Shown here piece by piece: positions 11,566-61,098 of a stretch of 64,000 bases of DNA. Each line of letters begins with the position of its first letter. Within the stretch, counting starts at the first letter, position 1. Source of the DNA: Ramlibacter sp. (GTDB taxonomy: Bacteria > Pseudomonadota > Gammaproteobacteria > Burkholderiales > Burkholderiaceae_C); NCBI RefSeq assembly GCF_028291745.1, contig NZ_JAQGNQ010000056.1, forward strand, positions 124,001-188,000, written 5' to 3'. Position numbers and translations under genes: made by a program. The notes under the pieces are model-generated. The model had not been told where the DNA came from, made no database searches, and worked only from the letters and a program-made list of their open reading frames with translations.

Positions 11566-11600
11566 GGGTCTGGCTGGATGGCTCGCGCCTGGATCGGCGA

Positions 11601-11721
11601 ATCTTGAACGCAGAAGTCGCAGAAGGAAAACCAAACACGCAGAAGGATCCGGAAGTTGAAATCCTTCTCGGATATTCTTCTGCGTGTTCTGAATTCGTTC
11701 TGCGACTTCTGCGTTCAAGAT
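11601..11721. repeat. 121-bp inverted repeat of CGCAGAAG family
   Basis: 24-bp perfect arms ATCTTGAACGCAGAAGTCGCAGAA / TTCTGCGACTTCTGCGTTCAAGAT, plus inner AACACGCAGAAGGAT / ATTCTTCTGCGTGTT. Confidence 0.85.
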
Positions 11722-11733
11722 TGCTTGATGCAC

Positions 11734-18490: not shown

Positions 18491-18578
18491 AGGATGTCAT
18501 TGCGGGCTTGACCCGCAATCCACGACTGCCCTTGCATCGGCGCAGCGTGGATCCCGGGTCAAGCCCGGGACGACATCC
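18491..18578. repeat. dispersed palindromic element, copy 1
   Basis: AGGATGTCATTGCGGGCTTGACCCGCAATCC...GGATCCCGGGTCAAGCCCGGGACGACATCC. Confidence 0.85.
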
Positions 18579-23723: not shown

Positions 23724-23835
23724 ACCGGACGCAGAAGGCGCAGAAACTTCGCAGAAGTCGCAGAAGAGAAAGATCAAGATTTTCTTGAATTCCTTTTGCG
23801 ACTTCTGCGTAACTTCCGCGCCTTCTGCGTCCGGT
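23724..23835. repeat. 112-bp inverted repeat of CGCAGAAG family, copy 2
   Basis: 18-bp perfect arms ACCGGACGCAGAAGGCGC / GCGCCTTCTGCGTCCGGT with further inner CGCAGAAGTCGCAGAAG / CTTTTGCGACTTCTGCG pairing. Confidence 0.85.
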
Positions 23836-35334: not shown

Positions 35335-35721
35335 ATGGCCATCCGCATCGTCCGCCTCGGCACCCCGCGCGCACCCGGCGAGGGCCTGCGGCTGGGCACG
35401 GTGCGGCGGCCGCCGCGCGGGGTGCCCAAAGAGGAATTCGCGGCGCGCGACTTCTACGACGTGTGGCTGCCCAACCTCGCACCCAGTGCGGAGCTGATGA
35501 CGCACGGGCGCGCCGCCGCCGACGACCAGCAGTGGGCCGCCTTCCGCCGCAAGTTCCAGGCGGAGATGAAGCGGCCCGAGGCGAGCCATGTGCTCGATAC
35601 GCTGGCGGCGCTGTCGCACCAGACGGCGTTCTCGCTCGGATGTTATTGCGAGGAGGAGCAGCACTGCCACCGGTCGGTGTTGCGGCAGTTGCTGGTGGAG
35701 CGCGGCGCGGAGATTTCGTGA
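35335..35721 (+). CDS. DUF488-family protein
   Basis: IRIVRLGTPR...EEFAARDFYDVWLPNLAPS...CYCEEEQHCHRSVL. Confidence 0.85.
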   Translation: MAIRIVRLGTPRAPGEGLRLGTVRRPPRGVPKEEFAARDFYDVWLPNLAPSAELMTHGRAAADDQQWAAFRRKFQAEMKRPEASHVLDTLAALSHQTAFSLGCYCEEEQHCHRSVLRQLLVERGAEIS

Positions 35722-35723
35722 AG

Positions 35724-35915
35724 GTCATTGCGGCCGCGAGGGATGTCATTGCGGAGCGCGGAGGATGTCATTGCGGAGCGCGGAGGATGCCATTGCGGGG
35801 CGCGGAGGATGTCATTGCGGGCTTGACCCGCAATCCACGCGGCAATCGATCACAGGCCGTCGTGGATCCCGGGTCAAGCCCGGGATGACATCCAACGGGC
35901 GCGGGATGACATCCG
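35724..35915. repeat. dispersed palindromic element, copy 2 (core 35807-35893) with 21-22-bp tandem duplications at both ends
   Basis: GTCATTGCGG at 35724, 35745, 35767, 35789 (GCC variant), 35811; GGGATGACATCC at 35882 and 35903. Confidence 0.85.
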
Positions 35916-35924
35916 AGGGTCCCG

Positions 35925-36824
35925 CTACAAGCGATTGTGAATCGCCGTCGCCGCGATCGCCGCGTGCCCTGCCGCCACGCTGATCTGGTTCAGGTCGACC
36001 GCCACGTCGCCCGCGACATACAGGCCGGGCACCGTCGTCTCCTGGTGCGCGTCCACCTCCAGCTGGCCGTTCTCGCGGGCGCGGGCACCCAGCGCCGTCG
36101 CCAGCTCACACACATGCCGCAGGCCCAGCGCGGGATACAGCGTGTCGAACTCCAGCACCTGGCCGTTCTGCAGCTCCACGCGCACGCCGCAGTTCTCCAA
36201 TCCGCAGTCGATGCGACGCGGCGGGCTTTCGGCCAGGCGCACGCCGGCAGCGCGCAACTGCGCGAGCTGCGCCGGGTCGACCTCCTCGTGCGTCGCCATG
36301 GCGAGCCAGGTGACCTGGTTGTCGAAACCGGAGATGAAGAGCGACTCGCGCAGCCCGTGGCCGGATCGCCCAAGCACCGCGACCCGCTGGCCCTGCGTCT
36401 CGAAGCCGTCGCAGATCGGGCAGTAGCGCACCTGCCCGGCCAGCATGGCGTCGCGGATGCCATCGATCTCCGGTTCGACGTCGCACGCACCGGTGGCCAG
36501 GATCGCGAAGCGGGCCCGCCAGGCGCGCCCCTGCGCTTCGGCACGGAAGCTGCCGTCCTCCAGGCGCTGCAGGCTTTCCACCGTGGCCTGCTCGGTGGGT
36601 GTGCCGTACTTGCGCGCGTGCTCGCGCATGCGCGCCAGCAGTTCCGCGCCTTCGATGCCGTCCGGAAAGCCCGGCACGTTGCGCGTGCGCGGAATGCGTT
36701 GGAGGCGACTATGCCCGGCATCGACGATCAGGGCGCGCCGCTGGTAGCGCCCCAGGTACACGGCGGCCGTGAGGCCGGCGGCGCCGCCGCCGATGATCAG
36801 GCAATCGAGGAGTTCTTCGGGCAT
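35925..36824 (-). CDS. NAD(P)/FAD-dependent oxidoreductase (thioredoxin reductase-like)
   Basis: [63 protein letters not shown]. Confidence 0.92.
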
Positions 36825-52046: not shown

Positions 52047-52076
52047 GGATGCCGGGTCAAGCCCGGCATGACATCC
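52047..52076. repeat. half copy of the GGGTCAAGCCCGG...GACATCC dispersed element
   Basis: GGATGCCGGGTCAAGCCCGGCATGACATCC matches the right arm of copies at 18491, 35807 and 61013. Confidence 0.75.
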
Positions 52077-61012: not shown

Positions 61013-61098
61013 GGATGTCATTGCGGGCTTGACCCGCAATCCAGACGGCGGTCGGCCAAGCGCCGCATGGATCCCGGGTCAAGCCCGGGATGACATCC
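61013..61098. repeat. dispersed palindromic element, copy 3
   Basis: GGATGTCATTGCGGGCTTGACCCGCAATCC...GGATCCCGGGTCAAGCCCGGGATGACATCC. Confidence 0.85.

What the first reader, a model, noticed from the sequence alone, without database searches (positions are those of the whole stretch)
35724..35915. Copy 2 has stepwise 21-22-bp tandem duplication of both termini
Left of the 87-bp core, the terminal motif GGATGTCATTGCGGAGCGCGGA recurs with starts 21-22 bp apart (35724, 35745, 35767, 35789, 35811). On the right, GGGATGACATCC recurs at 35882 and 35903. The other full copies lack this. The array begins right after the DUF488 stop. A replication/excision process acting at element ends, or slippage nucleated by the hairpins, could explain it. 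I do not recognise a described equivalent.
Basis: partly seen in the sequence, partly recalled or inferred. Interest (0 to 1): 0.6.

Follow-up and report, generated by a model that had tools for sequence, protein, structure and literature searches.

The report
Half-repeat arrays at CGTC-REP ends
A common family of short hairpin repeats in bacterial genomes grows small tandem arrays of half-hairpins at one particular end, in steps of about 20-25 bases, in at least six phyla; I found no published description, and it may be a trace of the unknown process that spreads these repeats.

Summary
The array is real: five left units (GTCATTGCGG at 35724, 35745, 35767, 35789, 35811) and two right units (35882, 35903), far beyond chance. 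The 87-bp core is a known kind of element, a head-to-head heterodimer of CGTC(TGTC)-tagged REPs. It is not a one-off. In the host genome 30 of 43 full copies carry such half-hairpin steps; the two other full copies in the window happen not to. Linkers are locus-specific, so the units are local tandem duplications. Sampling one complete Binatia chromosome gave extra units at 67 of 140 CGTC hairpin ends (control 3%), steps peaking at 21 bp; a pattern scan found the same layout in at least six phyla. GTAG REPs lack it (E. coli 1 of 63, a Pseudomonas-like genome 0 of 51). It is confined almost wholly to the tag side, and the step follows half the hairpin length plus about 10 nt. There is no replication-direction bias and no REP-linked transposase. 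I infer duplication by a tag-dependent DNA-processing step, broken at the hairpin apex and about 7 nt outside the tag, then ordinary slippage. Generic hairpin slippage is the main rival. The element is known; the end arrays look undescribed. Mechanism untested.

The parts
35724..35744 (+). left half-unit 1, outermost and degenerate (GTCATTGCGG + linker CCGCGAGGGAT)
35745..35766 (+). left half-unit 2 (GTCATTGCGGAGCGCGGAGGAT)
35767..35788 (+). left half-unit 3 (22 bp)
35789..35810 (+). left half-unit 4 (GCCATTGCGG variant)
35807..35893 (+). core: 87-bp head-to-head heterodimer of two CGTC(TGTC)-tagged REPs; folds as one long hairpin, -39.8 kcal/mol as ssDNA, z = -9.8
35811..35837 (+). left REP: tag (T)GTC, 8-bp stem ATTGCGGG/CCCGCAAT, loop CTTGA, tail CCA
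35863..35889 (-). right REP (reads tag-first on the minus strand): tail TGG, stem ATCCCGGG/CCCGGGAT, loop TCAAG, tag GAC
35899..35919 (+). right extra half-unit GCGCGGGATGACATCC + GAGGG, 21 bp after the core's own copy
35335..35721 (+). DUF488-N3a gene ending 2 bp before the array
35925..36824 (-). convergent FAD/NAD-disulfide oxidoreductase gene (Pyr_redox_2, thioredoxin-reductase-like)
18492..18578 (+). another full copy of the core, without end units
61013..61098 (+). another full copy of the core, without end units
52047..52076 (+). lone right-type REP with a compensated stem (ATGCCGGG/CCCGGCAT)

Best explanation
The core is a dispersed CGTC-tagged REP dimer. SHOWN: its tag-bearing ends carry tandem copies of a unit made of the tag-side half of the hairpin (from about the apex to the tag) plus some 4-11 bp of the neighbouring DNA of that locus. 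So the unit is a local tandem duplication, breaking near the hairpin apex and roughly 7 nt outside the tag. Arrays then lengthen and diverge like a minisatellite. SHOWN: the process acts on CGTC but not on the GTAG REPs tested, almost only on the tag side, without preference for replication direction, and its step grows with hairpin length at about half a base per base. INFERRED: the first duplication is made by a tag-dependent DNA-processing step, for example staggered strand breaks at the apex and just outside the tag followed by fill-in, or abortive one-ended transfer by whatever spreads CGTC REPs. Ordinary slippage or unequal recombination then amplifies it.
For: Half-unit steps at 30/43 own copies, chance 0.15-1.7%. 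Adjacent linkers within an array are 0.53/0.51 identical versus 0.25/0.28 between loci, 0 of 2000 permutations reaching this. Binatia: 67/140 hairpin ends with extras, control 3.3%, first step 19-23 bp in 63 of 67. Record titles from at least six phyla in the pattern scan, peak 21-24 bp. Tag side 67/139 versus tail side 12/139, most of the latter full-hairpin arrays or dimer partners; own genome tail side 0. GTAG controls: E. coli 1/63, Pseudomonas-like genome 0/51. Median step 20, 21, 23, 24.5 for hairpins of 20, 21, 22, 28 nt; Spearman 0.46, slope 0.66.
Against: No enzyme is identified: the genome's single Y1 transposase has no CGTC REP nearby, and published CGTC REPs lack a dedicated transposase (PMC3733652). 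Spread over many phyla suits a housekeeping process at least as well. Some units contain the whole loop and part of the 5' arm, so the apex breakpoint is not sharp. Tag-side bias could come from tags lying at the base of the large dimer hairpin, with lone hairpins as dimer remnants. The step-length trend rests on few 22- and 28-nt cases, and two 35-bp cases were left out. Only two GTAG genomes were sampled.
Confidence: 0.42

Rival explanations
1. Generic replication slippage at the hairpin. A polymerase stalls in or at the base of the hairpin, the nascent end slips back some 20 nt and copies the half-hairpin and flank again; normal slippage then expands the array. No dedicated enzyme is involved.
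For: Locus-specific linkers, sliding breakpoints with a fairly constant step, perfect minisatellite runs (Binatia 2148756-2149038), occurrence in at least six phyla, strong folding of the core.
Against: Equally hairpin-forming GTAG REPs do not step. The tail side of the same hairpins almost never steps. The step is not the full hairpin length: 28-nt hairpins give 24-25 bp. No bias with fork direction, about 30 versus 37 ends.
Confidence: 0.36
2. Selected binding arrays. The half-units are protein or RNA sites kept about two helical turns apart because repeated sites are useful, for example in transcription termination or nucleoid binding.
For: Peak near 21 bp; many arrays lie just after genes, as here.
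Against: The step varies with hairpin length; no clear class at 31-32 bp; units decay and number varies freely from 0 to 5; linkers are copies of flank rather than convergent.
Confidence: 0.12
3. Assembly or consensus artefact of draft contigs.
For: The host genome is a 148-contig draft.
Against: The array (about 110 bp) is short, units differ from one another by substitutions, and the same structure is abundant in a single 4.21-Mb chromosome record.
Confidence: 0.02

Closest known systems
CGTC-tagged REPs, CGTC-1 to CGTC-4 (Di Nocera, De Gregorio and Rocco 2013, PMC3733652)
   Same: Unpaired CGTC/TGTC/CCTC tag, 8-bp stem opening with AT, 5-nt loop, CCA tail, head-to-head heterodimers, no dedicated transposase.
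   Different: That survey scores whole palindromes, calls CGTC clusters rare, and its text has no occurrence of half, partial, truncated or slippage. The half-unit arrays at the tag end are not described there.
GTAG REPs / REPINs with RAYT (PMC3116915, PMC2817692)
   Same: Short tagged hairpins, head-to-head pairs, some tandem clusters including flanking sequence.
   Different: Clusters there are whole REPINs; half-hairpin steps at tag ends were 1/63 and 0/51 in the two genomes sampled.
Neisserial dRS3 repeats (equated with CGTC-1 in PMC3733652)
   Same: Same superfamily; 20-nt hairpins of this type show half-unit steps, mostly of 17-22 bp.
   Different: Known as whole 20-bp repeats; I found no report of half-unit arrays.
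BrickBuilt, a MITE with an internal 23-nt minisatellite in Porphyromonas gingivalis (PMC4596501)
   Same: Dispersed non-coding element carrying a short tandem array of similar period.
   Different: One unit family in one species, inside the element rather than at its ends, and not described as half of a hairpin.

Membership tests
CGTC-tagged REP | unpaired terminal CGTC (or TGTC/CCTC) motif on one side of the stem | tested here: met
   TGTC at both outer ends of the core; definition
CGTC-tagged REP | 8-9 bp stem with AT in the first two positions | tested here: met
   ATTGCGGG/CCCGCAAT and ATCCCGGG/CCCGGGAT
CGTC-tagged REP | 4-5 nt loop and unpaired CCA tail | tested here: met
   loops CTTGA and TCAAG, tails CCA (left) and TGG, i.e. 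CCA on the other strand (right)
CGTC-tagged REP | high copy number, mostly intergenic, head-to-head dimers | tested here: met
   43 full dimers scored among 227 candidate places; the intergenic part was checked only at the finding's locus
CGTC-tagged REP | no associated transposase gene | tested here: met
   only one Y1_Tnp gene in the genome; no CGTC REP in the sequence read around it
GTAG REP / REPIN | GTAG-type tag | tested here: not met
   tag is TGTC
GTAG REP / REPIN | RAYT flanked by copies of the element | tested here: not met
   the Y1_Tnp gene has unrelated inverted repeats beside it
Minisatellite / VNTR | tandem units of 10-100 bp | tested here: met
   period 22, 4.5 copies
Minisatellite / VNTR | copy number varies between strains | not testable with these tools
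   one genome per species is held; relatives lack the element at this locus

The most novel reading that the evidence does not exclude
CGTC REPs, thought to have no dedicated transposase, are processed in many phyla by an unrecognised tag-specific DNA-cutting or strand-transfer activity. It breaks the hairpin near its apex and a few bases outside the tag, and its repeated or abortive action leaves 20-25 bp half-hairpin duplications as scars.
Probability: 0.27. Interest if true: 0.8.

Novelty: new variant of a known kind. Interest (0 to 1): 0.55.

Why it matters
CGTC REPs are an old, very widespread repeat superfamily whose means of spread is unknown. A scar that marks one end, depends on the tag type and has a measurable step gives the first sequence-level handle I know of on what acts on them. 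It can be tested with plasmid-borne elements. It would also identify a large, predictable class of small tandem repeats, useful as strain-typing markers if they prove variable.

Tried and rejected
Replication-direction bias: in Binatia an initial set (CCCGGGATGAC type) gave 12 of 13 loci aligned with fork movement, but the wider sample, with the origin placed by GC skew at 2.44-2.48 Mb, gave about 30 fork-exit versus 37 fork-entry ends (counted from 421-kb bins), so the bias was dropped. Step equals full hairpin length: rejected by 28-nt hairpins giving 24-25 bp. Strictly constant 21 bp (helical phasing): weakened by the trend with hairpin length. RAYT mobilisation: no linked RAYT. Rfam: only sub-threshold miRNA matches, taken as chance hairpins. 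Synteny: no relative carries the element between DUF488 and the oxidoreductase gene; in L082 the two genes abut, but relatives are about 80% identical at best, so repeat-number change could not be tracked. Polypurine tract outside the tag as a target site: only the two bases next to the tag are strongly pyrimidine (0.96-0.98, read on the tag-first strand), with a weak bias further out; not conclusive. Literature searches by element sequence and by topic found no description of half-unit arrays; the library holds open-licence papers only.

Full report
OBSERVATION. The stated coordinates are correct. Left units begin at 35724, 35745, 35767, 35789 and 35811; right units at 35882 and 35903. Tandem Repeats Finder and the repeat finder both report the array. 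In 5000 dinucleotide-preserving shuffles of each flank, even one such unit arises 6 times (left) and 4 times (right); 4 and 1 are observed. The outermost left unit is the most degenerate. The array starts 2 bases after a DUF488 stop and ends before a convergent oxidoreductase gene.

WHAT THE ELEMENT IS. The 87-bp core 35807-35893 consists of two inverted hairpins, GTC-ATTGCGGG-CTTGA-CCCGCAAT-CCA and TGG-ATCCCGGG-TCAAG-CCCGGGAT-GAC, with TGTC tags facing outward; as single-stranded DNA it folds into one long hairpin (-39.8 kcal/mol, z = -9.8). Tag, stem length, AT start, loop length, CCA tail and head-to-head arrangement match the CGTC-tagged REP superfamily of Di Nocera et al. 2013 (PMC3733652). 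[quoted passage not shown] The host genome has many copies (227 candidate places), of which 43 full ones were scored. The genome's only Y1 transposase gene (L068 1096-1800) shows no CGTC REP in the sequence read around it; similar inverted sequences lie on either side.

NOT A ONE-OFF. With flanks fetched for these copies, 30 of 43 have half-unit steps on at least one side and 8 on both. Starting points taken in far flanks give 0.15% (up to 3 mismatches) or 1.7% (up to 4). Right-side steps are mostly 20-21 bp and left-side steps 18-22 bp; a separate class of 30-35 bp consists largely of whole hairpins. The linkers between units are like each other within a locus (identity 0.53 right, 0.51 left) and unlike those of other loci (0.25, 0.28; 0 of 2000 permutations reach the observed value). 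The units are therefore duplications of element end plus local flank, not repeated arrivals of one sequence.

BREADTH. The step histogram peaks at 21-24 bp, with a second group at 34-40 bp. In a chromosome-wide sample of the Binatia record OX638375.1 (100 pieces of 20 kb), 67 of 140 full CGTC hairpins have an extra unit on the tag side (control 3.3%), the first step being 19-23 bp in 63 of 67.

CONTROLS. The same kind of test on GTAG REPs gave 1 of 63 ends in 300 kb of E. coli K-12 and 0 of 51 in about 384 kb of a Pseudomonas-like genome (the name is inferred from its REP sequence). In Binatia the tail side of the same hairpins scored 12 of 139; inspection shows mainly whole-hairpin arrays or dimer partners, leaving about two real half-units. 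In the host genome the tail side scored 0. Steps are commoner at hairpins with a head-to-head partner (46 of 71) than at those without (21 of 68).

STEP LENGTH. For hairpins of 20, 21, 22 and 28 nt the median step is 20, 21, 23 and 24.5: roughly half the hairpin, plus the 3-nt tag, plus about 7 nt. The inner breakpoint slides between the end of the 5' arm and the start of the 3' arm while the step stays mostly within 19-24. The 22- and 28-nt groups are small (7 and 6) and two unclassified 35-bp cases were left out.

REPLICATION DIRECTION. A first hint of alignment with the fork (12 of 13 loci) vanished in the wider sample: about 30 fork-exit versus 37 fork-entry ends, origin placed by GC skew.

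SYNTENY. No relative has the element between the orthologous DUF488 and oxidoreductase genes; in one (L082) the genes abut. The relatives are too distant to show change in repeat number.

MECHANISM. Shown: local duplication, tag-side polarity, absence at the GTAG REPs sampled, dependence of the step on hairpin length, no fork-direction bias. Inferred: a tag-dependent processing step makes the first duplication and slippage then expands the array (confidence 0.42). Generic hairpin slippage (0.36) explains the breadth and the linkers but not the GTAG contrast or the polarity, unless tag-side position at the base of the dimer hairpin is what matters.

NOVELTY. The element is known. In the papers I could search I found no description of half-hairpin arrays at CGTC-REP ends. 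The nearest description is of whole REPINs or REPs repeated in tandem with flanking DNA.

Noticed in passing
window 11600-11722 and 23724-23835: Two further inverted repeats with 43-49 nt arms, 88% complementary, built from repeated CGCAGAAG / CTTCTGCG motifs; a second dispersed hairpin repeat type, unrelated to the CGTC REPs.
   Followed up: no
L068 1050-1840 (G000 C86): The genome's single Y1 transposase gene has similar inverted sequences on both sides (AATTGGGGTCAGATTC... / ...GAATCTGACCCCAATATT), resembling the TIR-flanked tyrosine transposases mentioned in PMC3733652.
   Followed up: partly
window 52047-52076: Lone right-type REP whose stem has changed on both sides (ATGCCGGG/CCCGGCAT), so pairing is kept.
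   Followed up: no
L323 (G388 2116909-2117088) and G388 3157051-3157373: Arrays of whole CGTC hairpins with 34- and 39-bp periods, nearly perfect, beside the half-unit class.
   Followed up: partly
G388 2148756-2149038: A run of nearly perfect 21-bp half-units (CCGGGGTGACGGTGCGGGGGC), the longest half-unit array seen in the listed matches; a likely hypervariable locus.
   Followed up: no
G388, 1.4-3.05 Mb: In the truncated match list the CCCGGGTCAAGCCCGGGGTGAC type lies almost only on the plus strand over this stretch, across the origin; heterodimer orientation may be regionally biased.
   Followed up: partly
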